Positions 5,766 to 39,856 of a DNA stretch of 40,625 nt are shown one piece after another. The translations under genes and the position numbers were made by a program. Source of the stretch: an uncultured Eubacteriales bacterium (GTDB lineage: Bacteria > Bacillota > Clostridia > Oscillospirales > Acutalibacteraceae); contig ONDU01000027.1 of NCBI GenBank assembly GCA_900316615.1, positions 1 to 40,625 of the forward strand, given 5' to 3'. The notes under the pieces are model-generated. The model made no database searches. It was not told the origin of the DNA and was given only the letters and a program-made list of their open reading frames with translations. The number at the start of each line of letters is the position of its first letter. The stretch's first letter is position 1.

Positions 5766-5860
5766 GCGATTGCAGCCGTAAAAAGACATACGTCTTTTTA
5801 CAGGGTTAAAGAGCATACGCTCTTTAACCGCCAATGCTCCGCATTGGCGGCTGCAATCGC
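5766..5860. repeat. Cloverleaf repeat element, copy 1
   Basis: Closing stem GCGATTGCAGCC (5766-5777) pairs perfectly with 5849-5860. Inside are three perfect hairpins: GTAAAAAGAC (5778-5787) with 5792-5801, loop ATAC; GGTTAAAGAGC (5804-5814) with 5819-5829, loop ATAC; and GCCAATGC (5830-5837) with 5841-5848, loop TCC. Only two bases lie between helices. CGGCTTTGC to the left and GCGAAGCCG to the right can extend pairing outward. The element lies between the PBP gene and hom. Confidence 0.85.
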
Positions 5861-5945
5861 ACGGGCGAAGCCGCAGACCTTTGCTCGGACGGAAAATATC
5901 TGTTCTGCGTTTAAAAAGTAAAGTAAAAATTTGAGGGGTGCAAAA

Positions 5946-7175
5946 ATGATACAGGTTGCAATTATGGGACATGGAGTAGTAGGCTCGGGAGTAGCCGAAA
6001 TACTGCTTACACACAAGAACAGCTTGAAAAAGAAGGTACATAACGATATAAGCATAAAGAAGATTCTTGATTTGAGAGAATTTCCCGGCTTGTCTTACTC
6101 GGATAAATTCACCAAGGATTTCAATGATATTGTAAATGACGAGGAAATAAAAGTAGTAGCAGAGGTAATGGGCGGAGTTCATCCCGCTTTTGATTTTGTA
6201 AAGCGTTGTCTTGAAGCAGGAAAAAGCGTAGTGACCTCAAATAAGGAGCTTGTTGCGAAAAAGGGAGCAGAGCTTCTTGCAATAGCAAAGGAAAAGAACG
6301 TAAGCTTTTTGTTTGAAGCAAGCGTAGGCGGCGGCATACCTATAATAAGACCGCTCAACAACTGTCTTGTAGCAAACGAGGTTGACGAAATCGCAGGAAT
6401 ACTTAACGGAACTACAAACTTTATACTTACAAAAATGATAACGGAAGCAATGTCATTCGAGGACGCACTTTCACTTGCACAGCAGCTCGGTTATGCTGAG
6501 CGTGACCCCTCCGCAGATGTAGAGGGTCACGATGCCTGCCGGAAGATATGTATTCTTGCGTCGCTTGCTTTCGGTAAGCACGTATATCCCGATAATATTC
6601 ATACAGAGGGTATAACAAAAATATCGCTTGAGGATGTCGAGTATGCAAACAACTGGGGAGGAGTTATAAAGCTTATAGGTGATGTAAAGCATATGGAAAA
6701 TAATATGCTTGATATATTTGTAGCACCTATGCTTATAAGCAGCGAAAGCCAGCTTTCCGGAATAGACGATGTTTTCAACGGAATTCTGGTAAGAGGCGAT
6801 GCAACGGGAGATGTTGTTTTCTACGGAAAGGGAGCAGGAAAGCTCCCCACAGCCAGTGCCGTTGTTGCCGATATAGTAGACTGCATAAAGCATATGTCTA
6901 CAGGAAAGTATCTTTTCTGGGAGGACTGTGACGGCAGTAATGTTATGCCTTATGAGGAAAGCGTATCCGCAATGTATGTAAGAGCAATCGGAGATATAAA
7001 GACAGCTGAAAAGGTATTCGGTGAAATTTCAAGGCTTACAAGGAAGAAGGCTCCCGATGACGAAATAGCTTTCACAACAGCTGAAATGTCCGTCAGGGAA
7101 TTTAAGTCAAAGCTTTCGGAGCTTGAGGAAAGCGGAGTAAGAGTAATTAATACGATAAGAATAGGCGACTTATAA
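5946..7175 (+). CDS. hom: Homoserine dehydrogenase
   Basis: NAD(P)-dependent reduction of aspartate semialdehyde to homoserine, the branch leading to threonine and methionine. The 409-residue protein has the Rossmann motif GHGVVGSG near residues 8-15, TSNKELVAKKG, the ILNGTTNFIL and GYAERDPSADVEGHDACRK catalytic-domain signatures, and a C-terminal region (about 335-409) whose spacing suggests an ACT fold but which lacks the usual DxPGVL signature. A TTG start at 5931 is possible, but GAGGGG at 5933-5938 is correctly placed for ATG 5946. It precedes lysC on the same strand, but a separate promoter and leader lie between them. Confidence 0.93.
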   Translation: MIQVAIMGHGVVGSGVAEILLTHKNSLKKKVHNDISIKKILDLREFPGLSYSDKFTKDFNDIVNDEEIKVVAEVMGGVHPAFDFVKRCLEAGKSVVTSNKELVAKKGAELLAIAKEKNVSFLFEASVGGGIPIIRPLNNCLVANEVDEIAGILNGTTNFILTKMITEAMSFEDALSLAQQLGYAERDPSADVEGHDACRKICILASLAFGKHVYPDNIHTEGITKISLEDVEYANNWGGVIKLIGDVKHMENNMLDIFVAPMLISSESQLSGIDDVFNGILVRGDATGDVVFYGKGAGKLPTASAVVADIVDCIKHMSTGKYLFWEDCDGSNVMPYEESVSAMYVRAIGDIKTAEKVFGEISRLTRKKAPDDEIAFTTAEMSVREFKSKLSELEESGVRVINTIRIGDL

Positions 7176-7235
7176 TAACAGCGAAGATACTAAAATTATA
7201 TATTACTGATTATGTACAATCTGACAAAATATACA

Positions 7236-7264
7236 TTGACTTTTATATTTTAATGTATTAAAAT
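7236..7264 (+). promoter_or_regulatory. Sigma-A type promoter for lysC
   Basis: TTGACT (7236-7241), a 17-base spacer and TAAAAT (7259-7264) lie between hom and lysC. Transcription should begin near 7271, giving a leader of about 60 bases. Confidence 0.65.
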
Positions 7265-7274
7265 AACCGATGGA

Positions 7275-7304
7275 TTCCCATTTCTGACTGTTTCAGAGCG
7301 GGAA
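7275..7304 (+). other. Leader hairpin upstream of lysC
   Basis: TTCCC (7275-7279) pairs with GGGAA (7300-7304), and TCTGA (7283-7287) with TCAGA (7293-7297), giving a two-part stem separated by an internal loop. It falls in the predicted lysC 5' leader. The leader is much too short for a lysine riboswitch or T-box, so any regulatory role is speculative. Confidence 0.35.
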
Positions 7305-7331
7305 CAATCTCAATAAGAAGGAGCTACACAA

Positions 7332-8540
7332 ATGAGCCTTATAGTGCAGAAATTCGGCGGAAGCTCCGTTGCAAATGCGGAGCGTGTAAACAATGTTGCA
7401 CGCATAGTAACGGATACCTACAAAAAAGGAAATAAGGTTGTAGTTGTTGTATCGGCTCAGGGAGATACAACAGACGATCTGATAGAAAAGCAGATGGAGA
7501 TAAATCCCAATGCTTCAAAGAGAGAAAGAGATATGCTTCTGGCAGCAGGAGAGCAGATTTCCATTGCATTGCTCGCAATGGCGATTGAGAAAATAGGCTG
7601 TCCTGTAGTGTCGCTGCTCGGCTGGCAGGCAGGAGTAAGAACAACTTCATCTCATACAAATGCAAGAATAAAGGCGATAGATTCCGAAAGAATACAGAGA
7701 GAGCTTGACCATAACAGAATAGTTATAGTAGCAGGCTTTCAGGGTATAACGAAGTACGGAGATGTAACAACGCTGGGACGCGGCGGCTCAGATACAAGTG
7801 CGGTTGCACTCGCATGCGGACTTCATGCCGACCTGTGTCAGATATATACTGATGTAGAGGGCGTTTATACTGCCGACCCCCGCAAGGTCAAGGACGCAAG
7901 AAAGCTTTCCGAAATATCTTATGATGAAATGCTTGAGCTTGCAACCTTAGGTGCACAGGTTCTGCATAACAGAAGCGTTGAGCTTGCTAAAAAATATAAT
8001 CTTGAGTTAGAGGTGCTTTCAAGCCTGACTTGTGCACCCGGAACAATCGTTAAGGAGGCAACAAGAGTGGAGAGTATGTTGATAAGCGGTATAGCAAAGG
8101 ATACCGACATAGCAAGAATTTCAGTTGTAGGTGTACCCGATGAACCCGGTCTGGCATTTAAGATGTTCTCAAAGCTTGCGGCAAAGGACGTAAATATAGA
8201 TATAATTCTTCAGTCTGTAGGTCGTGACGGAACAAAGGATATAGCCTTCACGGTAGCAAAGGATAAGCTCAATGACGCAAAGGCAGTTATTGAAGCATTT
8301 ATGCCCAGCTTAAAGGCTCAGAGAGTAATTTTTGACCAGAATGTTGCAAAGGTTTCAATAGTGGGAGCAGGAATGGAAACACATTCAGGCTTTGCTTCAA
8401 AGATGTTCGAGGCTCTTTACAATGCAAATATCAATATCCAGATGATTTCCACAAGTGAAATAAAAATTTCGGTTCTTATCAACAGTGAGGACGCAGACAG
8501 AGCTGTTTCCGCACTTCATGATAAGTTCTTTGAAAAATAA
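7332..8540 (+). CDS. lysC: Aspartate kinase
   Basis: Phosphorylates aspartate, the first step toward lysine, threonine, methionine and diaminopimelate. The 402-residue monofunctional enzyme has the KFGGSSVANAERV nucleotide/aspartate motif at residues 7-19, TLGRGGSDTSAVALA, and TDVEGVYTADPRKV. Two C-terminal ACT domains follow: about 265-330, beginning near ISVVGVPDEPGLAFK, and about 340-402, beginning near VSIVGAGMETHSGFA. They normally mediate feedback inhibition by lysine and/or threonine. The ribosome binding site AAGGAG lies at a normal distance. A long terminator follows the gene. Confidence 0.95.
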   Translation: MSLIVQKFGGSSVANAERVNNVARIVTDTYKKGNKVVVVVSAQGDTTDDLIEKQMEINPNASKRERDMLLAAGEQISIALLAMAIEKIGCPVVSLLGWQAGVRTTSSHTNARIKAIDSERIQRELDHNRIVIVAGFQGITKYGDVTTLGRGGSDTSAVALACGLHADLCQIYTDVEGVYTADPRKVKDARKLSEISYDEMLELATLGAQVLHNRSVELAKKYNLELEVLSSLTCAPGTIVKEATRVESMLISGIAKDTDIARISVVGVPDEPGLAFKMFSKLAAKDVNIDIILQSVGRDGTKDIAFTVAKDKLNDAKAVIEAFMPSLKAQRVIFDQNVAKVSIVGAGMETHSGFASKMFEALYNANINIQMISTSEIKISVLINSEDADRAVSALHDKFFEK

Positions 8541-8584
8541 TTCTGACAATATCTTAAAAATTTTTTCATGTTAAACTCTTTACG

Positions 8585-8638
8585 AAAGGCTGAGAGCTTA
8601 CCTCAATTTATGAGGATAGGTTCTCAGCCTTTTGTTTT
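8585..8638 (+). terminator. Rho-independent terminator of lysC
   Basis: AAAGGCTGAGA (8585-8595) pairs with TCTCAGCCTTT (8622-8632), with an inner CCTCA/TGAGG stem, followed by TTGTTTTG. It lies between the converging lysC and XRE genes and may serve both. Confidence 0.85.
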
Positions 8639-8652
8639 GCAGATAATTTTGT

Positions 8653-8931
8653 TCAATTATAACGCATATCGTCAATTATCTGTTGAATATGGGTTATTTT
8701 TAAATCTGATAAGCCTGTAATTTCAAGATAGCGTTTATTTTCAAGTCCTAAAAGATAATCGGTGCTTACGGAAAAAAATCCTGCTATTTTGACAAGCATA
8801 TCTATTGAGGGCTGTATATTATCGTTTTCCCAGTTTGAAACCGCCTGTTTTGATACCGAAAGGTGTCTGGCAAGCTCAACCTGAGTTATATTTCGCTGAT
8901 TGCGAAGAAGTTTGATTTTTTCATTAAGCAT
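8653..8931 (-). CDS. XRE-family transcriptional regulator
   Basis: A 92-residue DNA-binding protein with an N-terminal HTH (about residues 5-58). Its recognition region reads ITQVELARHLSVSKQAVSNWEND, followed by the standard PSIDMLVKIAGFFSVSTDYLLGL. A short C-terminal extension of about 30 residues holds no recognisable sensor. A TTG start at 8952 is possible, but AGGAG lies inside that extension and is spaced for ATG 8931. It is transcribed away from a promoter that reads to the right, and a 15-bp dyad lies between them, suggesting it controls itself and that promoter. Confidence 0.85.
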   Translation of the reverse strand: MLNEKIKLLRNQRNITQVELARHLSVSKQAVSNWENDNIQPSIDMLVKIAGFFSVSTDYLLGLENKRYLEITGLSDLKITHIQQIIDDMRYN

Positions 8932-8965
8932 AAGTAAAATCTCCTGTGTCAAAAATTACAATACC

Positions 8966-8980
8966 GTTGTATAAAACAAC
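8966..8980. promoter_or_regulatory. Candidate XRE operator
   Basis: GTTGT-ATAAA-ACAAC, a perfect 15-base dyad, directly abuts the -35 box TTGACA of the rightward promoter and lies 35 bases upstream of the XRE start codon. Its position suits a repressor site for both directions. Confidence 0.45.
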
Positions 8981-9009
8981 TTGACAATATATAAATACTG
9001 TGATATTTT
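8981..9009 (+). promoter_or_regulatory. Strong rightward promoter
   Basis: Consensus -35 TTGACA (8981-8986), a 17-base spacer ending in TGA, and -10 TATTTT (9004-9009), so an extended -10. Transcription should begin near 9016, about 225 bases before the next plus-strand gene. Confidence 0.7.
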
Positions 9010-9015
9010 AATAAT

Positions 9016-9184
9016 GGACAATGTGAATTTTTATTGTTTGCTTTTTCAGGGGTGCGGCAGATTTAAGGAATGATAAAAGTATTACAGAGCAGGTGTATAG
9101 TCTATAAATCAAAAAATGATTGCAGTAACGAAATAATCAGGCAGATTTTCAGATAAAAAGAAATTCTGCTTGATTTTTCTTTTT
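9016..9184 (+). ncRNA. Candidate short RNA or attenuated leader
   Basis: The stretch is bounded by a strong promoter ending at 9009 and a terminator-like hairpin at 9135-9184. It holds no convincing ORF: a 19-codon frame at about 9015-9074 lacks a ribosome binding site. The product could be a small RNA of about 165 bases under the divergent XRE regulator, or a leader whose termination controls the RpiR operon. I recognise no known RNA family. Confidence 0.3.
9135..9184 (+). terminator. Terminator-like hairpin upstream of the RpiR gene
   Basis: AATCAGGCAGA (9135-9145) pairs with TCTGCTTGATT (9165-9175) over 11 positions including one wobble, followed by the U-rich run TTTCTTTTT. Confidence 0.6.
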
Positions 9185-9240
9185 GGTAGTATTAAACTAT
9201 AATGTATATTCCAAAATCGTACCGAATGGGGGCGTTTAAA

Positions 9241-10155
9241 TTGGTTGAATCATTAATGCAGAGAATTGAAAGACTTCTTCCGAAGCTTTCCAAGGGTCAG
9301 AAGCTCATTGCAAAATATATTCAGACCGAATACGGTAAGGCTGCCTTTATGACCGCCGCAAAGCTTGGGGAAACAGTCGGAGTAAGTGAGTCCACCGTTG
9401 TAAGATTTGCCACGGAGCTTGGCTACAGCGGATATCCCAAAATGCAGCAGGCTATGCAGGAAATGATAAGAGATAAGCTTACCTCATTTCAGCGTATAGA
9501 GGTAAGTCAGGCGAGAATTGGCGGAGGAAGCGTCATTGAACACGTACTCAGCAGCGATATTGACAACATAAAGCAGACTATAGAAGAAATTTCTCAGGAT
9601 GATTTCGACAAAGCCGTAAAAGCAATATCAAATGCAAAAACAATATATATATACGGTCTGAGAAGCTCCTCCACTTTGGCAGGCTTTATGGGATATTATC
9701 TCAATCTCATATTCGGAAACGTAAAGGTTATATCTACTGCCGACAGGGCAAGACTTTATGAGGAGCTTTACAGAACAGGTGAGGAAGATGTTATGATAGG
9801 CATTACATTTCCAAGATACTCTCACCATGTATCAACAGCTATGAAATTTGCTATGGACAGACACGCCAAGGTAATAGCTATTACGGACAGTATGAATTCT
9901 CCCATAGCAAAAACCTCGGATTATGTCCTGCTTGCGAGAAGCGGTATGGCTACAATAGTGGATTCCCTTGTAGCACCGCTCAGTATCATAAATGCTCTTA
10001 TAGTTGCTACCGTTATAGAAAAAAAGGAAGATGTTGTAAAAACCTTTAAGGATTTGGAAATTATCTGGAATAATTACGGCGTATATAACCGTGATGACAG
10101 CGATGAAGCAATAGGTACAAATAAAGAAGATAAGGGGAAAGCAAATGCCTTGTAA
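9241..10155 (+). CDS. MurR/RpiR-family transcriptional regulator
   Basis: A 304-residue regulator with an N-terminal RpiR HTH (about 10-70; SKGQKLIAKYI, then AAKLGETVGVSESTVVRFATELGYSGYPKMQQ) and a C-terminal SIS sugar-phosphate-binding domain (about 115-250; IYIYGLRSSS near its start). Such regulators sense phosphosugars; the ligand cannot be read from sequence. I chose TTG 9241 because GGGGG (9228-9232) sits 8 bases upstream and homologues begin at this point. The earlier ATG (9202) lies inside a TATAAT sequence (9198-9203) that may be the gene's own -10 box. The stop overlaps the start of the next gene by 11 bases, so they are co-transcribed. Confidence 0.85.
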   Translation: MVESLMQRIERLLPKLSKGQKLIAKYIQTEYGKAAFMTAAKLGETVGVSESTVVRFATELGYSGYPKMQQAMQEMIRDKLTSFQRIEVSQARIGGGSVIEHVLSSDIDNIKQTIEEISQDDFDKAVKAISNAKTIYIYGLRSSSTLAGFMGYYLNLIFGNVKVISTADRARLYEELYRTGEEDVMIGITFPRYSHHVSTAMKFAMDRHAKVIAITDSMNSPIAKTSDYVLLARSGMATIVDSLVAPLSIINALIVATVIEKKEDVVKTFKDLEIIWNNYGVYNRDDSDEAIGTNKEDKGKANAL

Positions 10156-11377
10156 GGTTATAGTTGTCGGAGCAGGTGCGGCAGGAATGATGGCTGCGGG
10201 ATATGCAGGTTATTACGGCTGTGATGTTTTGCTTATTGAAAAAAATGCACGTCCGGGAAGAAAAATCCTTATAACAGGCAAAGGAAGGTGTAATGTCACA
10301 AACAACTGCGATAACGATACTTTTCTTGCAAATGTACCCACCAACAGCAGATTTTTGTACAGTGCAATAAACAGCTTCAATACACAGGATACTATGAGCT
10401 TTTTTGAAAGCAGAGGACTTCCGCTCAAAACCGAAAGAGGAAACAGAGTTTTTCCTGTATCGGACAAGGCTTCCGATGTTGCCGATACTTTGCTGAGGTT
10501 TACACATGAAAACGGCTGCCGTCTGATAAGTAGCGAAGTACATTCACTTATTATAAAAGACAATGCTGTATGCGGTGTAAAAACCTTATCGGGCGAGAGC
10601 ATATATGCCGACAAGGTAATAATTGCTACAGGCGGAAAGTCCTATCCTGCGACAGGTTCAACAGGTACAGGATATAAGCTTGCAAGGCAGGCAGGTCATA
10701 CTGTCATACAGCCGAAGCCGTCATTAGTTCCTGTTGTGTCCGACGATTTATTCTGTAAGGAGCTGCAGGGACTTTCGCTGAGAAATATTTCTCTGAAAGT
10801 CATTTCAAAAAAGGACGGTAAGGCTATATATTCCGATTTCGGGGAAATGCTTTTTACTCATTTCGGTGTGAGCGGTCCTGTTATCCTGAGTGCTTCAGCT
10901 TATCTTAACAATAAAAAACTCAGCGACTATTGCTTCTCAATAGACCTCAAGCCTGCTCTCAGCGAAAAACAGCTCGATTTGAGAATATTGCGTGACCTTG
11001 AAGCCTTTATAAACAAGGATATAAAGAACTCACTCGGAAAGCTGCTCCCGTCCAAGCTTATTCCCGTTGTTATAGAAAGAGCCGAAATTCCTATAAATAC
11101 AAAATGCAACTCAATAACTAAGGAACAGCGTCACAGACTGCTCGAAATACTGAAAAACTTTACCGTGAATATAAGTGGTTTCCGACCTATAGAAGAAGCC
11201 ATTATTACCTCGGGCGGTGTAAGTACTAAAGAAATAAATCCAAAGACTATGGAGTCAAAAATATGCAGAGGCTTGTATTTTGCAGGTGAGGTAATAGACG
11301 TTGATGCTTACACAGGCGGCTTCAATTTGCAGATAGCTTTCAGCACAGGCTATCTTGCAGGTACAGCCGTATATTGA
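10145..11377 (+). CDS. BaiN/HI0933-family FAD-dependent oxidoreductase
   Basis: A 410-residue flavoprotein of the HI0933/YhiN/BaiN family. It has an N-terminal FAD-binding Rossmann motif (VVGAGAAGMMAAGYAG, about residues 7-22), the family signature RKILITGKGRCNVTN, a second nucleotide-contact segment ATGGKSYPATGSTGTGY, LFTHFGVSGPVIL, and the C-terminal FAD-closing TSGGVSTKEINPKTMESK and GLYFAGEVIDVDAYTGGFNLQ. The physiological substrate of most members is unknown; BaiN reduces bile-acid intermediates, but that cannot be assumed here. The start overlaps the RpiR gene. In Clostridia this gene often precedes cmk-plsC-ispH, as it does here. Confidence 0.88.
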   Translation: MPCKVIVVGAGAAGMMAAGYAGYYGCDVLLIEKNARPGRKILITGKGRCNVTNNCDNDTFLANVPTNSRFLYSAINSFNTQDTMSFFESRGLPLKTERGNRVFPVSDKASDVADTLLRFTHENGCRLISSEVHSLIIKDNAVCGVKTLSGESIYADKVIIATGGKSYPATGSTGTGYKLARQAGHTVIQPKPSLVPVVSDDLFCKELQGLSLRNISLKVISKKDGKAIYSDFGEMLFTHFGVSGPVILSASAYLNNKKLSDYCFSIDLKPALSEKQLDLRILRDLEAFINKDIKNSLGKLLPSKLIPVVIERAEIPINTKCNSITKEQRHRLLEILKNFTVNISGFRPIEEAIITSGGVSTKEINPKTMESKICRGLYFAGEVIDVDAYTGGFNLQIAFSTGYLAGTAVY

Positions 11378-11433
11378 AGCCCTGAATTGTTCGGTTTAAA
11401 ATCCCGAACATAGCTTGCGGCATCGCTAAAACG

Positions 11434-11523
11434 GCGATTGCAGCCGTCAAAAGCTACGCTTTTGACAAGGCTTTCAAGGTTATAACCTTGAAAGCCCCTC
11501 GCATTGCGAGGGGCTGCAATCGC
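11434..11523. repeat. Cloverleaf repeat element, copy 2
   Basis: Closing stem GCGATTGCAGCC (11434-11445) pairs with 11512-11523. Three perfect hairpins lie inside: GTCAAAAGC (11446-11454) with 11458-11466, loop TAC; GGCTTTCAAGGTT (11469-11481) with 11484-11496, loop AT; and CCTCGC (11497-11502) with 11506-11511, loop ATT. The element lies between the flavoprotein gene and cmk, which are probably in one operon. Confidence 0.85.
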
Positions 11524-11586
11524 ATGGTGTACGCACAGACTTTGAATTGTAAGGTAAGAAATATAAAAATGAAAGGAAAGATAGAA

Positions 11587-12252
11587 ATGATTGCAGTAGC
11601 AATAGACGGCCCGGCAGGAGCGGGAAAAAGTACTTTGGCGAGGGCAGCGGCAAAAAGGCTTTCGTATATATATGTCGATACAGGAGCATTGTACCGTTCA
11701 ATAGCATTGAATGCGGTCAGAAATAATGTTGAAATATCAAATTCCGGGGAAATAGAAAAAATGCTCGAAAAAACAAAAATAGAACTGAAATTCATAAATG
11801 ATGAACAGCGAGTATTTCTTAACGGAGAGGACGTATCCGACAAAATAAGAACATCGGAAATTTCTATGGCAGCATCATCTATATCTGCACTGCCTGCTGT
11901 AAGAAGCTTTCTGCTGGAGCTTCAAAGAGAGCTTGCAAGAAAAAATAACGTTATTATGGATGGCAGAGATATAGGAACGGTAGTTCTTCCGAATGCACAG
12001 GTAAAGATATTTTTAACGGCTTCACCGGAATGCAGAGCAAAAAGAAGATATGACGAATATATTGCAAAGGGAAAACAGGAAAGCTATGATGACATATTGG
12101 AGAGCATAAAGCAAAGGGATTACAACGATTCCCACCGTGAAATAGCTCCGTTAACGGCTGCCGACGACGCTGTTACGGTAGATACATCTGATGATACACC
12201 GCAGCAGTCAGTTGAAAGAATAGTAAAAATAATAGAAGAAAAAGTGGTTTAA
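11587..12252 (+). CDS. cmk: Cytidylate kinase
   Basis: Transfers phosphate from ATP to CMP/dCMP. The 221-residue length is typical. It has the P-loop GPAGAGKST near residues 8-16, YVDTGALYRSIAL, the MDGRDIGTVVLPNAQVKIFLTAS core and a lid containing RAKRRYDEY. The frame stays open upstream to 11488 through the repeat, but that part is repeat-derived. AAAGGAAAGA precedes ATG 11587 and the protein homology starts there with MIAVAIDG. It is followed by plsC and ispH-S1 with short gaps. Confidence 0.95.
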   Translation: MIAVAIDGPAGAGKSTLARAAAKRLSYIYVDTGALYRSIALNAVRNNVEISNSGEIEKMLEKTKIELKFINDEQRVFLNGEDVSDKIRTSEISMAASSISALPAVRSFLLELQRELARKNNVIMDGRDIGTVVLPNAQVKIFLTASPECRAKRRYDEYIAKGKQESYDDILESIKQRDYNDSHREIAPLTAADDAVTVDTSDDTPQQSVERIVKIIEEKVV

Positions 12253-12314
12253 AATACAGCTTTTTCAAAAATAATACCGATTGTTAAACTGTCGGCAAAA
12301 ACAAGGAGGACAAT

Positions 12315-12959
12315 ATGGAGGGCAGCAAAAAGCAAATTCCATGGTTTTATTCATTTGCAAGGGGAGTGGTAACCCCCATAATATCTCTTTTATACAGGGT
12401 CAAGTTTACAAACAGAGACAATATTCCCAAAGACGGAGCCTACATTATAATATCAAATCACCTGTCAAATTTAGATCCCGTTATTTTGGGAATGGGGCAG
12501 CGTAAAAGAAAGCTTCGTTTTATGGCTAAAGCAGAGCTTTTCAAAAATAAATTTTTTGCAGGTCTTATAACTGCACTGGGAGCTTTCCCTGTTTTCAGAG
12601 GCGAGGGAGTTGACCGGGAAGCAATCAACACAGGAGAGGATATACTTAAAGAAGGCGGAGTAATGGTAATCTTCTTTGAGGGAAAAAGATCAAAGACAGG
12701 AGAATTTCTCAGACCTAAAACAGGAGCTATGCTTATAGCACATGCTACAAATACCCCTATAATCCCTGCGTGTATAACTCCCGAAAAAAAGCTTGTGAAA
12801 GCTTTCTGCAAAACAAGGGTTTCTTTCGGAGAGCCTGTAACGCTGGAAGAATTGGGAGTAGATGTAAATAATCCTGTTCCCAATCCGAGAGAACTCAGGA
12901 ACGCATCTAAAAAAGTAATGGAGAAGCTTGAGGAAATGCGTTCAAAGGAAGTATTTTAA
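12315..12959 (+). CDS. plsC: 1-acyl-sn-glycerol-3-phosphate acyltransferase
   Basis: Acylates lysophosphatidate to phosphatidate in membrane lipid synthesis. The 214-residue protein carries the acyltransferase motif I NHLSNLDP (H-x4-D), the FRGEGVDREA segment, motif III FFEGKRSKTG (variant of FPEGTRS) and IIPACI. A hydrophobic segment near residues 15-28 may be membrane-associated. The ribosome binding site AGGAGG lies 5 bases before the ATG. The gene sits between cmk and ispH, a common Clostridia order. Confidence 0.93.
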   Translation: MEGSKKQIPWFYSFARGVVTPIISLLYRVKFTNRDNIPKDGAYIIISNHLSNLDPVILGMGQRKRKLRFMAKAELFKNKFFAGLITALGAFPVFRGEGVDREAINTGEDILKEGGVMVIFFEGKRSKTGEFLRPKTGAMLIAHATNTPIIPACITPEKKLVKAFCKTRVSFGEPVTLEELGVDVNNPVPNPRELRNASKKVMEKLEEMRSKEVF

Positions 12960-12976
12960 AGCAGAGGAGTTTTTAT

Positions 12977-21673: not shown

Positions 21674-21782
21674 GGTGCGACCCGCCTGACAATTTTCCAA
21701 GGAAAATTGTCGGAAGGAATTTTAAAAAAATTCCTTCCATAAAAAATTTTCAAAGAAAATTTTTTATACGGCGGGTCGCACC
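21674..21782. repeat. Closed three-hairpin element of different sequence
   Basis: A perfect 13-bp closing stem, GGTGCGACCCGCC (21674-21686) with 21770-21782, encloses three perfect hairpins: GACAATTTTCC (21688-21698) with 21701-21711; GGAAGGAATTTT (21712-21723) with 21727-21738; and ATAAAAAATTTTC (21739-21751) with 21755-21767. The plan matches the GCGATTGCAG family but no sequence is shared. It lies between fabF and accB. Confidence 0.85.
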
Positions 21783-30874: not shown

Positions 30875-30967
30875 GCGATTGCAGTCCACGGCAGCATTCG
30901 CTGCCGTGAAATTCAAAGCAAAGCTTTGAATTTGACAAAAGCTTAAGCTTTTGTCGGCTGCAATCGC
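30875..30967. repeat. Cloverleaf repeat element, copy 3
   Basis: Closing stem GCGATTGCAG (30875-30884) pairs with 30958-30967. Three perfect hairpins: CACGGCAGC (30887-30895) with 30900-30908; AAATTCAAAGC (30909-30919) with 30923-30933; and GACAAAAGC (30934-30942) with 30947-30955. The hairpin order is opposite to copies 1, 2 and 5. It lies between the divergent ypeB and yqzL genes; GCGAAGCCG follows on the right, as in copies 1 and 4. Confidence 0.85.
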
Positions 30968-31005
30968 AGCCTGAGCGAAGCCGGAAGTATTTTAAAAATA
31001 TCATA

Positions 31006-33049: not shown

Positions 33050-33259
33050 TTATTTTTTTCTCATATCCCTGACATTTGTTACAGAGCCGTCAGGGTTTTC
33101 TATAACCATATTGTCGAGCTGTCCCTGAAGATTGGCACGGAATTCCCCTATGTATTCTTTGTATAGAGCCTTTTGTTCTGCAAGCTCGTCATCAGTAAGC
33201 CCGACCGCTCTTTTCTTTTTTGCAAGCTGATTAATTCTGTTTATTTTATCATTTGTCAA
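33050..33259 (-). CDS. DUF896 (YnzC/UPF0291) small protein
   Basis: A 69-residue protein of unknown function matching the YnzC/DUF896 family: NDKINRINQLAKKKRAVGLTDDELAEQKALYKEYIGEFRANLQGQLDNM, then a short basic end. B. subtilis YnzC forms a two-helix structure and is linked to the SOS region there; nothing here shows a role. I chose TTG 33259 because GAGGTG lies 7 bases upstream and family members begin at this point; ATG 33274 lies before that site. It is monocistronic and transcribed away from groESL. Confidence 0.85.
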   Translation of the reverse strand: MTNDKINRINQLAKKKRAVGLTDDELAEQKALYKEYIGEFRANLQGQLDNMVIENPDGSVTNVRDMRKK

Positions 33260-33475
33260 ATCAAAACACCTCATTTTAAAGTAACTGTTGCAGAAATTAT
33301 ATCATATTCGGGTAAGATATGGTTTAATAATTTGTTAATAGAGGCAGGTAATTATATAGCAATTATAAAAATAAATTGATACGCATATATTGTATATTAT
33401 CCGGAGCTGAAAATTTGTCGAACGGAGCATATAAAGAAGAAATGTAAATAATTTATTAAAGAGTAAAAATAATGC

Positions 33476-33504
33476 TTGATTTTTGGAAGCAAAAGGTATA
33501 TCAT
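33476..33504 (+). promoter_or_regulatory. Sigma-A type groESL promoter
   Basis: TTGATT (33476-33481), a 17-base spacer and TATCAT (33499-33504). Transcription should start within the CIRCE element, which begins five bases after the -10 box. Confidence 0.7.
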
Positions 33505-33508
33505 ATCT

Positions 33509-33535
33509 TTAGCACTCAGGGTAAAGGAGTGCTAA
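33509..33535. promoter_or_regulatory. CIRCE operator (HrcA binding site)
   Basis: TTAGCACTC-N9-GAGTGCTAA, an exact match to the CIRCE consensus, lies at the predicted groESL start site and 33 bases before the groES ATG. HrcA represses from this site and is released on heat shock; hrcA itself is not in the window. Confidence 0.97.
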
Positions 33536-33568
33536 AAAATAACACTTAACCATTAGGAGGATAATATT

Positions 33569-33853
33569 ATGACTATCAAACCATTATTAGACAGGGTAGT
33601 TTTGAAATCTGCGAAAGCAGAGGAAACAACCAAGAGCGGTATTGTTCTTGCAGCATCGGCACAGGAGAAGCCTCAGTTTGCTAATGTAGTTGCAGTAGGC
33701 CCGGGCGGAGTTGTAGATGGTAAAGAGGTTACAATGTATGTAAAGGTTGGAGATAAAGTAATAACCAACCAGTATTCCGGAACAAACGTAAAGCTTGACA
33801 ATGAGGAGTATACTATAGTAAAGCAGTCAGATATACTTGCAGTTGTAGAGTAA
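33569..33853 (+). CDS. groES: Co-chaperonin GroES
   Basis: The 10-kDa heptameric lid of the GroEL chamber, 94 residues. It begins MTIKPLLDRVVLKSAKAEETTKSGIVL, with the mobile loop in the KAEETTKSGIVLAAS segment, then VVAVGPGG and the closing YTIVKQSDILAVVE. AGGAGG precedes the ATG. It is the first gene of the CIRCE-controlled operon, 54 bases before groEL. Confidence 0.97.
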   Translation: MTIKPLLDRVVLKSAKAEETTKSGIVLAASAQEKPQFANVVAVGPGGVVDGKEVTMYVKVGDKVITNQYSGTNVKLDNEEYTIVKQSDILAVVE

Positions 33854-33886
33854 GAGCAGAAGGTATTGTACTGTATACGATTTTGA

Positions 33887-35530
<1,644 letters not shown>

Positions 35531-35547
35531 TAGTTATTAATAAAAGC

Positions 35548-35585
35548 AAAAGCCGGCAGTCTTTTTTAAGACCGCCGGCTTTTTT
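35548..35585 (+). terminator. Terminator of the groESL operon
   Basis: AAGCCGGC-A-GTCTT pairs with AAGAC-C-GCCGGCTT around a short T loop with one internal mismatch, followed by TTTTT. Confidence 0.9.
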
Positions 35586-35589
35586 GAGC

Positions 35590-35678
35590 AGTTTAAGGGC
35601 TTTGCCCTTAAAAATCCCACCAAAGGCTCTGCCTTTGGAAACCGCAAGCCTTTGAAAAGGCTTGACCCAAACTTTATG
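35590..35678. repeat. Three-hairpin intergenic repeat, intact copy
   Basis: Three perfect hairpins: TTTAAGGGC (35592-35600) with 35604-35612; CCAAAGGC (35620-35627) with 35631-35638; and CAAGCCTT (35645-35652) with 35657-35664. A 5-bp AGTTT/AAACT closing stem is possible but competes with the first hairpin. An inverted decayed copy is at 2439-2528. It lies between the converging groEL and gerA-type genes, starting 4 bases after the groESL T-tract. Confidence 0.75.
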
Positions 35679-35704
35679 GTTTATTTTTTCCGATAATATA
35701 GAGG

Positions 35705-37228
35705 CTATTCGGCAACATCTTTTATAATGGTTCGTTTTTTACCAAGAATTTTCCAGTCGGCTCTTATCGCAACATCTCTCATGCCGAACATATTGAACGG
35801 AGCAACAGGCATAGTATACGGAACGCCTAAAACGGATTTTCCGCAGACATTTACTGTAAGGACGCAAAACAGAAGAACGATTCCCCATATTCCTAGAATA
35901 CCGCCTGCAAATATAAAAAGAATTCTGAGAACATACAGCTGGGGATACAGGTTTGGAATAACATAGGAGGCTATAGCAGTAATGGCTACAATCATAAGTG
36001 AAGGGGCTACTATAAGTCCTGCACTTACGGCGGTGTCACCTATTACCAATGCACCGACAATACTTACAGCGTGTCCGAGGGACTTTGGAAGTCTCAGACC
36101 TGCTTCACGCATAATTTCATACATAAACAGGACAAGAAGTATTTCGGTAACTAGGCTGAACGGTGTATTTCCGATAGAGGTTTCAAGCTGATTCAGAATT
36201 TGTTCGGGAAAAAGCTCAGGATTGAACAAAGCTACAGCAATGTATATTCCGGGCAGTAAAGAGGCGACAAAAAAGCACAGATATTTAAGCCATCTGATGA
36301 GCGTTGCGTAATACGGCTTGTAGGAATAATCTCCCATAGTCTGGAAATTTTCCACGAAAAGGTAAGGCACGATAAGTGCGGACGGCGTACCGTCTATCAG
36401 TACTGCTATTCTGCCCTCGTTTATTTTTCCGCCTACAGTATCCGGACGTTCGGTAATGCCAACTCCGCTGAAAAAAGAGCGGTCGTTTTCGTCCTCTAAA
36501 AAGCTTACAAGATAACCGCTTGCAAGAACTGTATCAATATCAATACTGTTTAATTTATCTTTAAGCTTTTTTAAAATACTGTCGCTCACAGCGTCCGTTA
36601 TATAGCAAAGGCAGATTTCGGTTTTGCTGAGTTCTCCTAAAATCATAGTTTCCATTTTAAGCTTTGGATTTTTAATTCTTCTTCGCAGAAGACTCATATT
36701 TATATGGAGAGGCTCGACAAAGCCCTCTCTGCTTCCACGCTCGGAAACTTCGCTTTCGGGTTCTGTAACGTTTCGGAAGCTGTATCCCTGAACTCCAATA
36801 CATATTGCAGTACTGCAGCCTTCTATGATTAAAACGGCAAAGCCTGACATTATCATCTGAAGCAAGTCCTCAAAATTGTCTGTACGTGAGATGTCAGATG
36901 CCGAAAGCACATATTTTTCGATATATCCCAGAAGCTCCAGCTTTTCTGTCTTATCAGGATAGAAGCTTTTTAGAAGAGGACTTATGACGCTCAGGGAAAG
37001 AGTTTCTTTGTCGCACATACCCTCTATTGTTACAACTGCACACCGCTTTTCGTTTACAGAAAGATTTCTTACGGTAAGGTCTGCCGAGCCGTCAAATTTC
37101 GCCTGAATATATCCTGTGTTTTTATCGGTGTTATCGTAAAGGCGGGTTTTGACGGTTTGTTTTTTTGTGTTGCCGCTTTGGGAGTCTGAAGCTGAAAAGT
37201 ATTTCCAAAGCTTTAAAAGCTCATTCAT
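35705..37228 (-). CDS. GerA/SpoVAF-family spore germination protein
   Basis: An A-subunit-type germinant receptor protein of 507 residues. The first roughly 300 residues are cytoplasmic and include the family segment ERGSREGFVEPLHINMSLLRRRIKNPKLK (usual form RGPREGF; Pro is Ser here) and GKINEGRIAVLIDGTPSALIVPYLFVENFQTMGDYSYKPYYATLIRWLKYLCF. The rest carries about five membrane helices, including LLPGIYIAVALFNPE and LRLPKSLGHAVSIVGALVIGDTAVSAGLIVAPSLMIV, as in GerAA and SpoVAF. No gerB or gerC partners are adjacent, so it may be a SpoVAF-like or orphan A subunit. AAAGGA lies 13 bases before the ATG. It indicates a spore-forming or recently spore-forming lineage. Confidence 0.88.
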   Translation of the reverse strand: MNELLKLWKYFSASDSQSGNTKKQTVKTRLYDNTDKNTGYIQAKFDGSADLTVRNLSVNEKRCAVVTIEGMCDKETLSLSVISPLLKSFYPDKTEKLELLGYIEKYVLSASDISRTDNFEDLLQMIMSGFAVLIIEGCSTAICIGVQGYSFRNVTEPESEVSERGSREGFVEPLHINMSLLRRRIKNPKLKMETMILGELSKTEICLCYITDAVSDSILKKLKDKLNSIDIDTVLASGYLVSFLEDENDRSFFSGVGITERPDTVGGKINEGRIAVLIDGTPSALIVPYLFVENFQTMGDYSYKPYYATLIRWLKYLCFFVASLLPGIYIAVALFNPELFPEQILNQLETSIGNTPFSLVTEILLVLFMYEIMREAGLRLPKSLGHAVSIVGALVIGDTAVSAGLIVAPSLMIVAITAIASYVIPNLYPQLYVLRILFIFAGGILGIWGIVLLFCVLTVNVCGKSVLGVPYTMPVAPFNMFGMRDVAIRADWKILGKKRTIIKDVAE

Positions 37229-37313
37229 AAAACATCATTCCTTTTTAGTTGTTTTTTGTTTTTGAAGCAAAATTTATGTATTGACGGAGAGTATATGCTG
37301 ATGTTTGTTGACT

Positions 37314-37353
37314 TTCAATATATTTTTATTGAAATTTCAAAAAATATATTGAA
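37314..37353. repeat. AT-rich inverted repeat
   Basis: TTCAATATATTTTT (37314-37327) pairs with the arm ending at 37353 across an ATTGAAATTTC-type loop. It lies upstream of the gerA-type gene on the minus strand. It could be an operator or a simple AT-rich hairpin. The rest of 37229-37529 is AT-rich DNA plus the cloverleaf copy at 37412. Confidence 0.45.
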
Positions 37354-37411
37354 TTTATCTATAAGCAGTCTGTACATTTAATGTTAAAAGCTGATTTTCA
37401 AAAACAGGTGC

Positions 37412-37506
37412 GGCGATTGCAGACCACGGCAGACAAAGTCTGCCGTGAAATTCAAAGCTATGCTTTGAATCCATCAAAAGCTATGCTTTTGATGTCTGCA
37501 ATCGCC
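37412..37506. repeat. Cloverleaf repeat element, copy 4
   Basis: Closing stem GGCGATTGCAGA (37412-37423) pairs with 37495-37506. Three perfect hairpins: CACGGCAGAC (37425-37434) with 37438-37447; ATTCAAAGC (37450-37458) with 37462-37470; and CATCAAAAGC (37472-37481) with 37485-37494. Copy 3 is its closest relative, with the same hairpin order but different loops and some different pairs. GCGAAGCCG follows on the right. It lies between the EamA permease gene and the gerA-type gene. Confidence 0.85.
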
Positions 37507-37529
37507 GCAGCGAAGCCGTAAGCTGAATT

Positions 37530-38423
37530 TTAATTTTCAGATGAATTTCTTTTCTTTTTGTTGTACAGAAACATAACTATTGCCATGGAACATATTATGA
37601 CATATCCTATCCAGCTGAGAATATCGGGGATTTGTCCGAAAACTATAAATCCCAGCGAAGCGGCAAAAATTATCTGAGAGTAATCGTATACGGAAATATC
37701 CCTTGCGGGAGCGTAACAGTATGCTGCCGTAATGGTAAACTGACCGCCTGCGGCGGAAAGACCGGCAAGAAGCAGAAATATAAGCTGCTGCAGGCTCATC
37801 GGTACAAATCCGAATATAAGAAAAGGCAGAGTCACCGCACAGGAAAAAGCGGAAAAGAAGAAAACGATTACCGCACCCTTTACGTTTTTTTGTCCGAGCA
37901 TTCTTACAAAGGTATATGCAATACCTGCACACATTCCGCCGAAAAGACCCGCAAAAGCAGGAACGGTATCGGCATTTGCAAAGCTGGGTTTTACAACAAG
38001 CATAGCTCCTGCAAAAGCCGAGGCTACTATAATAATCTGAGCAGGACGGATTTTTTCCCTGAGTAAAATTACGCTGAATATTATAGCAAAAAAGGGTGAC
38101 ATCTTATTAAGAATAGAAGCATCCGCAAGGTCAAGAGTACCCAGTGCATAGAAATTACACAAAACTCCTGCTGTACCGAAAGATGAACGCAGTATGAGAG
38201 GAAGCAACGCATTTTTAGGAATATTTATCTTTTCGCCGTCCCTTATAAGAATAATTCCTGCAAAAATGAAGGCTACAAAATTCCTGAAAAAGCTCTTTTG
38301 TAAAGAAGGCAGATTTCCCGAGAGCTGTACGAACATATTCATAAGAGCAAAGAAAAATGCAGACAGAATAATCAGTACAATACCCTTATATAACGGTCTG
38401 ATATTTTTAAATTTATCAATCAT
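37530..38423 (-). CDS. EamA/DMT-family permease
   Basis: A drug/metabolite-transporter-superfamily membrane protein of 297 residues with about ten hydrophobic helices in two EamA repeats. The first repeat starts near IVLIILSAFFFALMNMFVQLSG and includes LNKMSPFFAIIFSVILLREKI; the second starts near FAGLFGGMCAGIAYTFVRMLG and includes YSQIIFAASLGFIVFGQIPD. The substrate cannot be read from sequence. The ribosome binding site is weak (GGGAA). It follows panD by 19 bases on the same strand, so export or uptake linked to pantothenate or its precursors is possible but unproven. Confidence 0.85.
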   Translation of the reverse strand: MIDKFKNIRPLYKGIVLIILSAFFFALMNMFVQLSGNLPSLQKSFFRNFVAFIFAGIILIRDGEKINIPKNALLPLILRSSFGTAGVLCNFYALGTLDLADASILNKMSPFFAIIFSVILLREKIRPAQIIIVASAFAGAMLVVKPSFANADTVPAFAGLFGGMCAGIAYTFVRMLGQKNVKGAVIVFFFSAFSCAVTLPFLIFGFVPMSLQQLIFLLLAGLSAAGGQFTITAAYCYAPARDISVYDYSQIIFAASLGFIVFGQIPDILSWIGYVIICSMAIVMFLYNKKKRNSSEN

Positions 38424-38442
38424 AGCTTTGTTCCCGAAAAAG

Positions 38443-38841
38443 TCAGTTTAGCATATCTTCACTCAGTACACCGTATTTTTCGTAGCGTACTTTTTTAACT
38501 ATCCTGTTGTCACTGTCTACGAAAACAACATTTGGCTTGTGAGATGAAACAAGGCTGTCATCAAGCTGACAGTAGGACATAATTATAACGTGGTCGCCCG
38601 TCTGTACACATCGTGCGGCAGCACCGTTAAGACAAACCATACCTGAATTTTTTTCTCCGGCTATTGTATATGTTTCTAGTCGGTTTCCGTTATCGATGTC
38701 TACAACCTGTACTTTTTCGTACTCATAAATTCCTGCTGCCTCCATCAATACAGGATCTATGGTAATGCTTCCTATATAGTTAAGCTCCGACTGTGTTACA
38801 ACTGCACGGTGTATTTTTCCCTTTAACATTGTAATCTGCAT
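38443..38841 (-). CDS. panD: Aspartate 1-decarboxylase
   Basis: Makes beta-alanine for pantothenate. The 132-residue proenzyme self-cleaves at Gly24-Ser25 (in NYIGSITID) to form the pyruvoyl cofactor. Other family motifs are [51 protein letters not shown] and the C-terminal [13 protein letters not shown]. An AAGG site precedes the ATG. It lies 21 bases downstream of panC in the same operon. Confidence 0.95.
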
Positions 38842-38862
38842 ATATTTCAGCCTTTCGTAAAT

Positions 38863-39720
38863 TTATATTTCTTTGCCGTTCTCTATGATAAAATTATCTA
38901 TGAGTCTGGTTTTTCCGATATATACGGCTACAGCCGCAAGAATATCTCCTTTTATAACAGCAATCTTTTCAATATCGGGAAAGCTCACGATTTCAACATA
39001 ATCAATCCTTGCAAGAGGTTCGCTTTCAATAATATCAGATATACGCTTTTTAATATCAGAAGCATTTTTTTCTCCGCACAAAAGCATCTTTTTGCCTTCC
39101 TCAAGAGCCTTGTGAAGTATGAGTGCCGCATTTCTTTCATCCTTGCTGAGATAAACGTTTCTTGAGCTTTTTGCAAGTCCGTCTGCCTCTCTTACGATAG
39201 GACAGCCGACAATTTCTATGTCAAAGTTTAAATCTCTTACCATTCTTTTTATAACAGCAAGCTGCTGTGCGTCCTTCTGACCAAAGTATGCCTTGTCGGG
39301 AGAGGCTATATTAAACAGCTTTGAAACAACTGTGCATACGCCTCTGAAATGTATGGGTCTGCTTTTTCCGCAAAGCTCCTCGGAAGGACCTGTCATATTA
39401 ACAAATGTAGTTGCGTTCGGAAAATACATTTCTTCTGCTGACGGGTGAAAAATCAAATCTGCCCCTTCCTGCTCGCAGACCCTTGCATCTCTTTCAATAT
39501 CTCTGGGATAGCTTTCCAGATCCTCCGTAGGTGCAAACTGTGTAGGATTAACAAAATCGCTTACAATTACTCTGTCATTTTCCTTGCTTGCACGTCTTAT
39601 AAGGCTTGCGTGTCCCTCATGGAGATAGCCCATTGTAGGTACAAGACCTATAGTAAGTCCGTTTTTTTTCCATTCTTTGATAATATTTCTTGCTTCTGAA
39701 ACAGTGTTTACGATTTTCAT
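38863..39720 (-). CDS. panC: Pantothenate synthetase
   Basis: ATP-dependent condensation of pantoate and beta-alanine. The 285-residue protein shows the nucleotidyltransferase signature PTMGYLHEGHASLIRRA, VSDFVNPTQFAPTED, FRGVCTVVSKLFNI, and FGQKDAQQLAVIKRMV. AAGGAG precedes the ATG. It lies between panB and panD; a cloverleaf repeat (39763-39856) separates it from panB. Confidence 0.96.
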   Translation of the reverse strand: MKIVNTVSEARNIIKEWKKNGLTIGLVPTMGYLHEGHASLIRRASKENDRVIVSDFVNPTQFAPTEDLESYPRDIERDARVCEQEGADLIFHPSAEEMYFPNATTFVNMTGPSEELCGKSRPIHFRGVCTVVSKLFNIASPDKAYFGQKDAQQLAVIKRMVRDLNFDIEIVGCPIVREADGLAKSSRNVYLSKDERNAALILHKALEEGKKMLLCGEKNASDIKKRISDIIESEPLARIDYVEIVSFPDIEKIAVIKGDILAAVAVYIGKTRLIDNFIIENGKEI

Positions 39721-39762
39721 AAAATTATCTCCTTAAATTTTTACTCCCTGCCCACGTCAGCA

Positions 39763-39856
39763 GGCGATTGCAGGTGTCAAAAGATTTTCTTTTGACACGG
39801 TTTAAAGGTGAAACCTTTAAACGTACCGCAGACTTGTCTGCGGTACTGCAATCGCC
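39763..39856. repeat. Cloverleaf repeat element, copy 5
   Basis: Closing stem GGCGATTGCAG (39763-39773) pairs with 39846-39856. Three perfect hairpins: GTGTCAAAAGA (39774-39784) with 39788-39798; GTTTAAAGGT (39800-39809) with 39813-39822; and TACCGCAGAC (39824-39833) with 39836-39845. The hairpin order matches copies 1 and 2 on the plus strand, although the flanking panB and panC genes are on the minus strand. Confidence 0.85.

What the first reader, a model, noticed from the sequence alone, without database searches (positions are those of the whole stretch)
5766..39856. Family of five cloverleaf-forming intergenic elements with covarying hairpins
Elements at 5766-5860, 11434-11523, 30875-30967, 37412-37506 and 39763-39856 share a closing stem (GCGATTGCAG / CTGCAATCGC) and are all 90-95 bases long. 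Each contains exactly three perfect hairpins packed end to end. Most hairpin positions differ between copies, yet both arms change together, so pairing is preserved. Allowing for inversion (copies 3 and 4), the order is constant: an AAAAG-type hairpin, a middle T-rich/AAAG-type hairpin, then a GC-richer one. This is seen directly. A constraint on structure, as RNA or as a cruciform/four-way DNA junction, is inferred, as is spread by a transposase acting in trans (compare REP/RAYT systems). I cannot name a described family.
Basis: partly seen in the sequence, partly recalled or inferred. Interest (0 to 1): 0.8.

Follow-up and report, generated by a model that had tools for sequence, protein, structure and literature searches.

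The report
Flipping DNA cloverleaf repeats between genes
This bacterium and a sister species each carry well over a hundred short DNA cloverleaves between genes, whose hairpin arms stay paired while some hairpin tips flip over, which suggests that DNA copying itself, and not only selection on an RNA, keeps the structure.

Summary
All five window elements fold as described: 144 of 144 hairpin pairs are Watson-Crick. They belong to a family with 134 exact-stem copies in this genome and 135 in one sister species (RUG158), with none in the other four genomes of the genus. A sixth cloverleaf with a different stem lies in the window (21674-21782), and another genus (G096) has its own set.

Comparing 41 orthologous elements between the two species:
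- arms usually change together: 43 compensated against 17 broken pairs
- 14 of 123 hairpins have an exactly inverted tip (permutation mean 0.4); 0 of 198 other hairpins do
- one whole element is inverted.

G-U pairs are no commoner than A-C mismatches, in element or transcription orientation. This points to DNA-level maintenance, most simply replication template switching, and away from a structured RNA. Stems also diverge more slowly than flanks (4% against 18%), so selection on the structure is likely too. REP/RAYT fails in its defining feature: no Y1 transposase match in either genome. Origin, mobiliser and host function remain unknown.

The parts
5766..5860 (+). cloverleaf 1 (order AAAAG hairpin, middle, GC-rich); hairpins 5778-5801, 5804-5829, 5830-5848
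   Evidence: fold; parse; ortholog L051 2596-2694 differs at all three tips
5746..5765 (+). outer flank of cloverleaf 1 on the AAAAG side (CTTCCGGCTTTGCTGACACG)
   Evidence: flank listing; flank motif counts
11434..11523 (+). cloverleaf 2; hairpins 11446-11466, 11469-11496, 11497-11511
   Evidence: in ortholog L020 5845-5934 the two arms of the middle hairpin changed together at two pairs
11414..11433 (+). outer flank of cloverleaf 2 (CTTGCGGCATCGCTAAAACG)
30875..30967 (-). cloverleaf 3, inverted relative to 1; hairpins 30887-30908, 30909-30933, 30934-30955
   Evidence: ortholog L011 2276-2368
30968..30987 (-). outer flank of cloverleaf 3 (reads AGCCTGAGCGAAGCCGGAAG on +)
37412..37506 (-). cloverleaf 4, inverted relative to 1; hairpins 37425-37447, 37450-37470, 37472-37494
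   Evidence: state in the sister species unresolved
37507..37525 (-). outer flank of cloverleaf 4 (GCAGCGAAGCCGTAAGCTG on +)
39763..39856 (+). cloverleaf 5; hairpins 39774-39798, 39800-39822, 39824-39845
   Evidence: in ortholog L103 9346-9437 the middle tip is exactly inverted, GGTGAAACC to GGTTTCACC
21674..21782 (.). sixth cloverleaf, different closing stem GGTGCGACCCGCC/GGCGGGTCGCACC, three perfect A+T-rich hairpins
   Evidence: stem-agnostic scan; fold (coordinates counted from that output)

Best explanation
These are copies of a lineage-specific, non-coding, intergenic repeat of about 95 bp (in many copies with an outer flank of about 20 bp) that acts at the level of DNA. Each copy can form a four-helix structure (closing stem plus three hairpins), as single-stranded DNA at the fork or as a cruciform. 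Shown here: arms are almost always perfectly paired; between two species arms mostly change together; about one tip in nine is exactly inverted, and one whole cloverleaf of 41 is; there is no preference for G-U pairs on either strand; most copies that could be compared sit at the same site in both species. Inferred: replication forks switch template within these hairpins, copying one arm from the other. This makes mutations symmetrical in one step, and when the switch is to the other strand it flips the tip. Also inferred: because stems diverge about four times more slowly than flanks, and the five tip-proximal pairs hardly at all, selection also acts on the structure of individual copies. How copies first spread, and what they do for the host, is not shown; use as structural (cruciform) sites behind gene ends is my best guess.
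For: Copy number: 134 and 135 exact-stem copies in two sister species, 0 in the other 4 genomes of the genus and in the other 298 of 300 family genomes. Pairing: 5454 of 5499 stem pairs Watson-Crick in 184 oriented elements, G-U 12, A-C 10, other 23; in transcription direction G-U 8, A-C 8 in 126 elements. Orthologs, 41 element pairs: 1137 pairs same, 43 changed on both sides with pairing kept, 17 broken. Compensated changes are 20 transition-type and 23 transversion-type (my sum from the type table), like flank substitutions, 393:436, so no G-U route is visible. Tips: 14 of 123 exactly inverted; 2000 permutations give mean 0.40, maximum 4; 0 of 198 control hairpins. Against control hairpins with stems of 9 or more (n=45), compensated:broken is 43:17 against 21:65, p=1.5e-8; with stems of 10 or more (n=21) 16:29, p=3e-4. 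Whole inversion: L143 3483-3577 against L072 3480-3576. The yeast study PMC8604942 (abstract and the section on spacer inversion read) reports arm homogenisation and spacer inversion by template switching, spacer inversions only with arms over 9 bp and 2-5 bp substituted, the dimensions seen here. Context, by my own crude gene calls: tandem 118, convergent 27, divergent 8 (17 overlapping a predicted frame and 14 at contig edges left out) against baseline gaps 280:75:70, p=3e-4; no orientation bias, 67:51.
Against: Unbiased arm-to-arm copying alone should leave stems diverging about as fast as flanks. They do not: 4.3% per base against 18.1%, and tips 31%. Compensated changes concentrate away from the tip (4 of 607 pairs within five of the tip, 39 of 590 beyond), which template switching does not predict by itself. 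The comparison with controls is not fully even: cloverleaf orthologs had to be recognised as cloverleaves in both species, control hairpins had to be perfect in one only. Matched controls are few: 45 hairpins with stem 9 or more (inversion contrast p=0.02) and 21 with stem 10 or more (0 inverted, too few to tell). No mutation was watched; L191 and RUG158 (99.7-99.9% identical) share three identical cloverleaves (compared by eye). No mobiliser and no host function were found.
Confidence: 0.6

Rival explanations
1. A structured RNA element (3' UTR or small RNA) whose base pairing is kept by selection on the transcript, with classical compensatory mutations.
For: Strong covariation: 23 of 34 consensus pairs show changes on both sides in 45 sequences; stems diverge less than flanks; elements sit close behind gene ends, median 42 bases by crude gene calls.
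Against: No G-U tolerance on the element's own strand (12 against 10) or on the transcribed strand (8 against 8); 23 of 43 compensated changes are transversion-type with no G-U intermediate; tips and one whole element invert; no orientation bias to genes (67:51, p=0.17); no Rfam match in the window.
Confidence: 0.15
2. A transposon-derived miniature element (MITE, or REP/RAYT-like) still mobilised in trans, with the hairpins needed for transposition.
For: Inverted-repeat closing stem, over a hundred copies, intergenic, two clean empty sites in the sister species (L016 5841-5868, L075 5033-5057).
Against: No Y1 transposase match in either genome; among 56 copies with a sister flank held, 41 are paired with an ortholog and 2 more are present but missed by the detector, against 2 empty sites found in the six unpaired sites read; no clear target duplication at the two empty sites (by eye). 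Other transposase families were not tested.
Confidence: 0.12
3. A dedicated structure-specific enzyme (hairpin or junction processing) acts on these sites, and the flips are its products rather than replication errors.
For: Inversions and co-changes are more frequent here than in other hairpins of the same genomes; slow-changing pairs next to the tips.
Against: No such enzyme identified; short perfect palindromes in yeast flip, explained there by replication template switching (PMC8604942); closing stems also vary with compensation in some copies, so there is no invariant recognition sequence. The copies were collected by their stem, so its apparent constancy is partly by construction.
Confidence: 0.12
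4. Bidirectional intrinsic transcription terminators.
For: Position behind genes and avoidance of divergent gaps; a T run of 5 or more within 60 bases downstream in 42 of 126 against 23 of 126 upstream.
Against: Only 7 of 126 have 4 or more T in the first 8 bases after the closing stem; three hairpins plus a closing stem are more than a terminator needs; no strand preference.
Confidence: 0.05

Closest known systems
Template-switch (quasipalindrome) mutation at inverted repeats: PMC8604942 (yeast; abstract and one section read), PMC8794818 (RNA hairpins; abstract and opening read)
   Same: Arm homogenisation and exact inversion of short spacers between arms of about 10 bp; multi-base compensatory changes not needing wobble intermediates.
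   Different: The yeast cases are scattered hairpins in genes; here one repeat family carries three hairpins and a closing stem in over a hundred places, with events seen on all three hairpins.
REP / REPIN elements with RAYT transposases (PMC3733652, PMC3116915, PMC2817692: search-listing titles and abstract starts only)
   Same: High-copy intergenic palindromes.
   Different: About 95 bp with four helices rather than a 20-40 bp palindrome; no RAYT match in either genome.
bcr1 of the Bacillus cereus group and stem-loop families catalogued in PMC2267715 (search listing only; details of bcr1 recalled)
   Same: Repeated intergenic sequences able to fold.
   Different: I saw no report of a cloverleaf, tip inversion or arm co-change, but read none of these papers beyond the listing.
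Parvovirus inverted terminal repeats (recalled, no call)
   Same: Stem with internal hairpins whose order flips (flip/flop) because hairpin ends are resolved by copying.
   Different: Those are ends of a linear virus genome; these are internal chromosomal repeats with no known nickase.
Integron attC sites (recalled, no call)
   Same: Folded single-strand shape conserved while stem sequence varies.
   Different: One hairpin with extrahelical bases, used by IntI; a cloverleaf of three hairpins is a different shape. An integrase was not searched for.

Membership tests
REP/RAYT | Y1 (RAYT) transposase in the genome | tested here: not met
   PF01797: 0 matches in G000 (90.9% complete) and G001 (100%), positive in 7 of 20 relatives searched
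REP/RAYT | 20-40 bp palindrome (size from the abstract start of PMC3733652) | tested here: not met
   elements are about 85-109 bp, one of 150 at 121, with four helices
REP/RAYT | GTAG or CGTC tag at one end (title of PMC3733652) | tested here: inconclusive
   no such tag stood out in the flank consensus of 184 copies; no dedicated test
MITE | short, terminal inverted repeats, high copy | tested here: met
   134 copies with 10-bp inverted ends
MITE | target-site duplication at filled against empty sites | tested here: inconclusive
   two clean empty sites, flanks diverged, no clear duplication
MITE | related autonomous transposon | not tested
   only the Y1 family was searched
Structured RNA family | covariation of paired positions | tested here: met
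Structured RNA family | G-U wobble on the RNA strand commoner than A-C | tested here: not met
   12 against 10 and 8 against 8
Structured RNA family | match to a described Rfam family | tested here: not met
   0 matches in the window at gathering threshold
Structured RNA family | transcription of the elements | not testable with these tools
   no expression data
Template-switching inverted repeats | arms homogenised between relatives | tested here: met
   43 compensated against 17 broken; controls with stem 9 or more 21:65
Template-switching inverted repeats | exact spacer inversion | tested here: met
   14 of 123; 0 of 198 controls
Template-switching inverted repeats | dependence on replication factors or nucleases | not testable with these tools
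   SbcD not found in either cloverleaf lineage, but absence is common in the family
Intrinsic terminator | T tract directly after the hairpin | tested here: not met
   7 of 126

The most novel reading that the evidence does not exclude
A chromosomal DNA-cloverleaf system: over a hundred four-helix sites behind genes, maintained copy by copy because the cell uses their extruded DNA shape, and processed by a structure-specific enzyme that cuts and recopies them, so that tips and whole elements flip much as viral hairpin ends do. It has arisen or persisted in at least two lineages in which SbcCD was not found.
Probability: 0.14. Interest if true: 0.93.

Novelty: new variant of a known kind. Interest (0 to 1): 0.72.

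Why it matters
Covariation is usually read as proof of a functional RNA structure. Here is a natural family with very strong covariation in which direct tests (no wobble preference, tip inversions, strand symmetry) point to DNA-level copying between arms. With 130 or more copies per genome and two species to compare, it makes the proposal that template switching maintains hairpins measurable in a bacterium, and shows a case where covariation alone could be misread as an RNA. If the slow stem divergence reflects selection, it would also be a genome-wide set of sites selected as DNA shapes.

Tried and rejected
REP/RAYT origin: no Y1 transposase match. DNA-uptake-like single motif: the 10-mer is mostly paired, 38 pairs against 7 singles in 347 kb. 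Strand-specific RNA: wobble test failed. Terminator: no T tract directly after the stem. Large outer stem as a regular part of the structure: only 21 of 184 copies have paired outer extensions of 6 bp or more (127 at 0-2, 36 at 3-5, 6 at 6-8, 15 longer), and 40-nt outer arms pair only slightly better than permuted ones (p=0.02). Phage carriage: of three IMG/VR hits two have no hairpin cluster, and L191 is 99.7-99.9% identical to RUG158. SbcCD loss as the cause: SbcD was not found in either cloverleaf lineage while the other four genus members have it, but only 60 of 150 family genomes have SbcD over the cut-off and 40 of 150 have no match at all. The genomes G200 and G271 (same genus as G096) also lack it and show no cluster in 80 and 30 kb. 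So it is at most permissive. For SbcC no genome of 20 passed the curated cut-off; strong partial matches were in the four genus members, none in G000 and one weak in G001. Literature: searches gave nothing useful.

My detector needs GCGATT at the stem foot, so stem constancy is partly by construction, as it is in alignment A1, whose members were chosen by that stem. Orthologs: of 92 elements, 43 were paired and 2 dropped as mispaired (rows 16, 79), leaving 41; 36 had no held sister flank; 13 had a flank but no detected element. Of those 13, six were read: two empty, one site with another repeat type, one with a wholly different cloverleaf, two present but missed through a stem mutation. Seven were not read; for one of these (row 74) the flanks lie about 95 bases apart, so the element is probably present.

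Full report
WHAT WAS CLAIMED AND WHAT IS THERE. The five elements exist as described. Each folds on either strand into a closing stem with three hairpins, and all 144 hairpin base pairs in the five are Watson-Crick. A stem-agnostic scan found a sixth cloverleaf in the window at 21674-21782 with an unrelated 13-bp stem. Rfam (gathering threshold) and tRNA searches of the window were empty. The ten neighbouring proteins scanned look like ordinary core genes: penicillin-binding protein, homoserine dehydrogenase, HI0933-like, cytidylate kinase, YpeB, RecO, GerA, EamA transporter, pantoate ligase, ketopantoate hydroxymethyltransferase.

COPY NUMBER AND RANGE. The exact pattern GCGATTGCAG-N60..90-CTGCAATCGC occurs 134 times in the window's genome (control 0) and 135 times in one of five other genus members. 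The other four genus members have none, and the pattern was found in 2 of 300 family genomes. A covariance model built from 45 copies gave the same two genomes in the genus (candidate cap reached). In 150 family genomes it gave only this genome and G096 of another genus (RUG158 was evidently not in that draw); in 147 genomes of the order only this one. Stretches of G096 (143 kb) hold 22 three-hairpin clusters, 17 with closing stems of 7 or more, built on different stems such as GGCGGCAAGCC/GGCTTGCCGCC. In these 22 clusters 662 of 669 pairs are Watson-Crick, with no G-U. So the architecture exists in two lineages. The 18 non-RUG158 hits of the collection scan have no three-hairpin structure. 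Samples of other relatives had no closed cloverleaf, except one cluster with a closing stem of 7 or more in G002; these samples are small, 3.5 to 120 kb per genome.

ANATOMY. In 184 oriented elements the order is an AAAAG-type hairpin, a middle one, then a GC-richer one (my orientation rule), most with 9-12 pairs and a tip of 3-4 bases. On the AAAAG side a flank (consensus near CTTGCGGCTTCGCTCAGGC) was found in 78 copies on that side only, 14 on the other side only, 6 on both, and 86 had neither at my threshold. At 3 mismatches or fewer the motif occurs 24 times beside an element and 4 times elsewhere in 917 kb, and those four are broken copies still carrying GCGATTGCAG. Closing stems vary too, with compensation: GCGATTTCAG, GCGATTGCAT, GCGGTTGCAG, GTGATTTCAG, GAGATTGCAG. 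Paralogous arms in this genome are only 55%, 42% and 37% identical for the three hairpins, yet nearly all pairs are kept.

DNA OR RNA. In 5499 stem pairs there are 45 non-Watson-Crick pairs: 12 G-U, 10 A-C, 23 other. An RNA under selection should tolerate G-U on its own strand; it does not stand out there, nor when 126 elements between co-directional genes are turned into the direction of transcription (8 against 8). Elements show no significant preference for gene direction (67:51, p=0.17) and avoid divergent gaps (8 of 153 against 70 of 425, p=3e-4). Only 7 of 126 have a T tract directly after the stem; a T run of 5 or more lies somewhere within 60 bases downstream in 42 and upstream in 23.

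EVOLUTION BETWEEN THE TWO SPECIES. Flank matching gave 43 orthologous elements, two of which were dropped as mispaired. In 41 element pairs, 1137 stem pairs are the same, 43 changed on both sides and still pair, and 17 are broken; in the closing stem 404 are the same, 2 compensated, 4 broken. 23 of the 43 are transversion-type by my sum from the type table. 37 of the 40 runs of such changes are single pairs. Of 123 hairpins, 44 are identical over the tip and four bases on each side of its centre and 14 are exact reverse complements, against a permutation mean of 0.40 and maximum of 4 in 2000. One element is inverted as a whole (row 67). Control hairpins elsewhere in the same alignments: 0 of 198 inverted, and 19 compensated against 255 broken pairs; with stems of 9 or more, 0 of 45 inverted and 21 against 65; with stems of 10 or more, 0 of 21 inverted and 16 against 29. 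Against the 45, the cloverleaves differ at p=1.5e-8 for co-change and p=0.02 for inversion. The controls were required to be perfect in one species only, whereas cloverleaves were detected in both, which favours my reading somewhat. Between L191 and RUG158 (99.7-99.9% identical) three shared cloverleaves are identical (by eye).

READING. Template switching at inverted repeats is documented to homogenise arms and to invert spacers; the yeast paper PMC8604942 (abstract and the section on spacer inversion read) reports spacer inversions only for arms over 9 bp. PMC8794818 (abstract and opening read) proposes that such events create and maintain RNA hairpins. The present family shows both marks in quantity, so this is the best-supported mechanism for how the hairpins stay perfect. 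It is not the whole story. Stem bases differ by 4.3% between species, the adjoining 60 bases by 18.1% and tips by 31%, and the five pairs next to the tip hardly change (4 of 607 compensated, against 39 of 590 further out). Unbiased copying would not slow divergence, so I infer selection on the structure, perhaps on the step of hairpin formation, at individual loci. What is selected is unknown.

ORIGIN AND TURNOVER. Of 56 copies with a sister flank held, 41 were paired with an ortholog (two further pairings dropped). Of six unpaired sites read, two are clean empties, two hold the element with a mutated stem, one holds a wholly different cloverleaf and one a different repeat. Remnants consisting of the flank plus GCGATTGCAG without hairpins also occur. 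This suggests an old expansion with slow turnover. No mobiliser was found; only the Y1 family was tested. SbcCD, the nuclease known (recalled) to cut hairpins, was not found in either cloverleaf species: no SbcD in G000 or G001, no SbcC in G000 and one weak match in G001. SbcD was not found in G096 either, but is present in the other four genus members. Since it is also below cut-off in 90 of 150 family genomes, and SbcD-less relatives of G096 show no cluster in 110 kb sampled, this is a permissive factor at most.

VERDICT. The RNA-or-DNA question leans to DNA; REP/RAYT is rejected as a membership. It is a new family with an unusual architecture and a known kind of mutational mechanism. Function and spread are open.

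Noticed in passing
window 35591-35663 (and the inverted 83% match at 2460-2528): A second, modular multi-hairpin repeat (GTTTAAGGGYTT..., CCAAAGGCTCTGCCTTTGG, GCAAGCCTTTGAAAAGGCTTGACC modules), well conserved and without closing stem; by eye 46 of the 51 other clusters in 917 kb of this genome are of this kind, and G002 has 42 clusters in 112 kb, the 12 printed being of a similar kind.
   Followed up: partly
L200-L207 (G096): An independent-looking cloverleaf family with other stems in another genus of the family, about one per 6.5 kb in the sample.
   Followed up: partly
41 ortholog pairs: Base pairs within five of the hairpin tip are almost frozen while tips themselves and outer pairs change; not explained by template switching alone.
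   Followed up: partly
L143 6625-6716 against L072 232-320: Same intergenic site holds two quite different cloverleaves in the two species.
   Followed up: no
L156 7208-7299 against L031: Where one species has a cloverleaf, the other has the second repeat type.
   Followed up: no
window 2537-2587: A perfect 25-bp inverted repeat with a 1-base centre (TTAAGGCAACACCGCACAATTTGCT).
   Followed up: no
window 5477-5594: Short direct repeats (units of 30-36 bases) near the 3' end of the penicillin-binding protein gene.
   Followed up: no
L191 (IMG/VR contig): Labelled viral but 99.7-99.9% identical to RUG158 contigs over its length; probably bacterial DNA.
   Followed up: partly
184 elements: 5' arms are A-rich and 3' arms T-rich (A-T 1988 against T-A 965 pairs) while C-G and G-C are equal (1254, 1247); since hairpins are their own reverse complement in the arms, this holds on both strands.
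   Followed up: no
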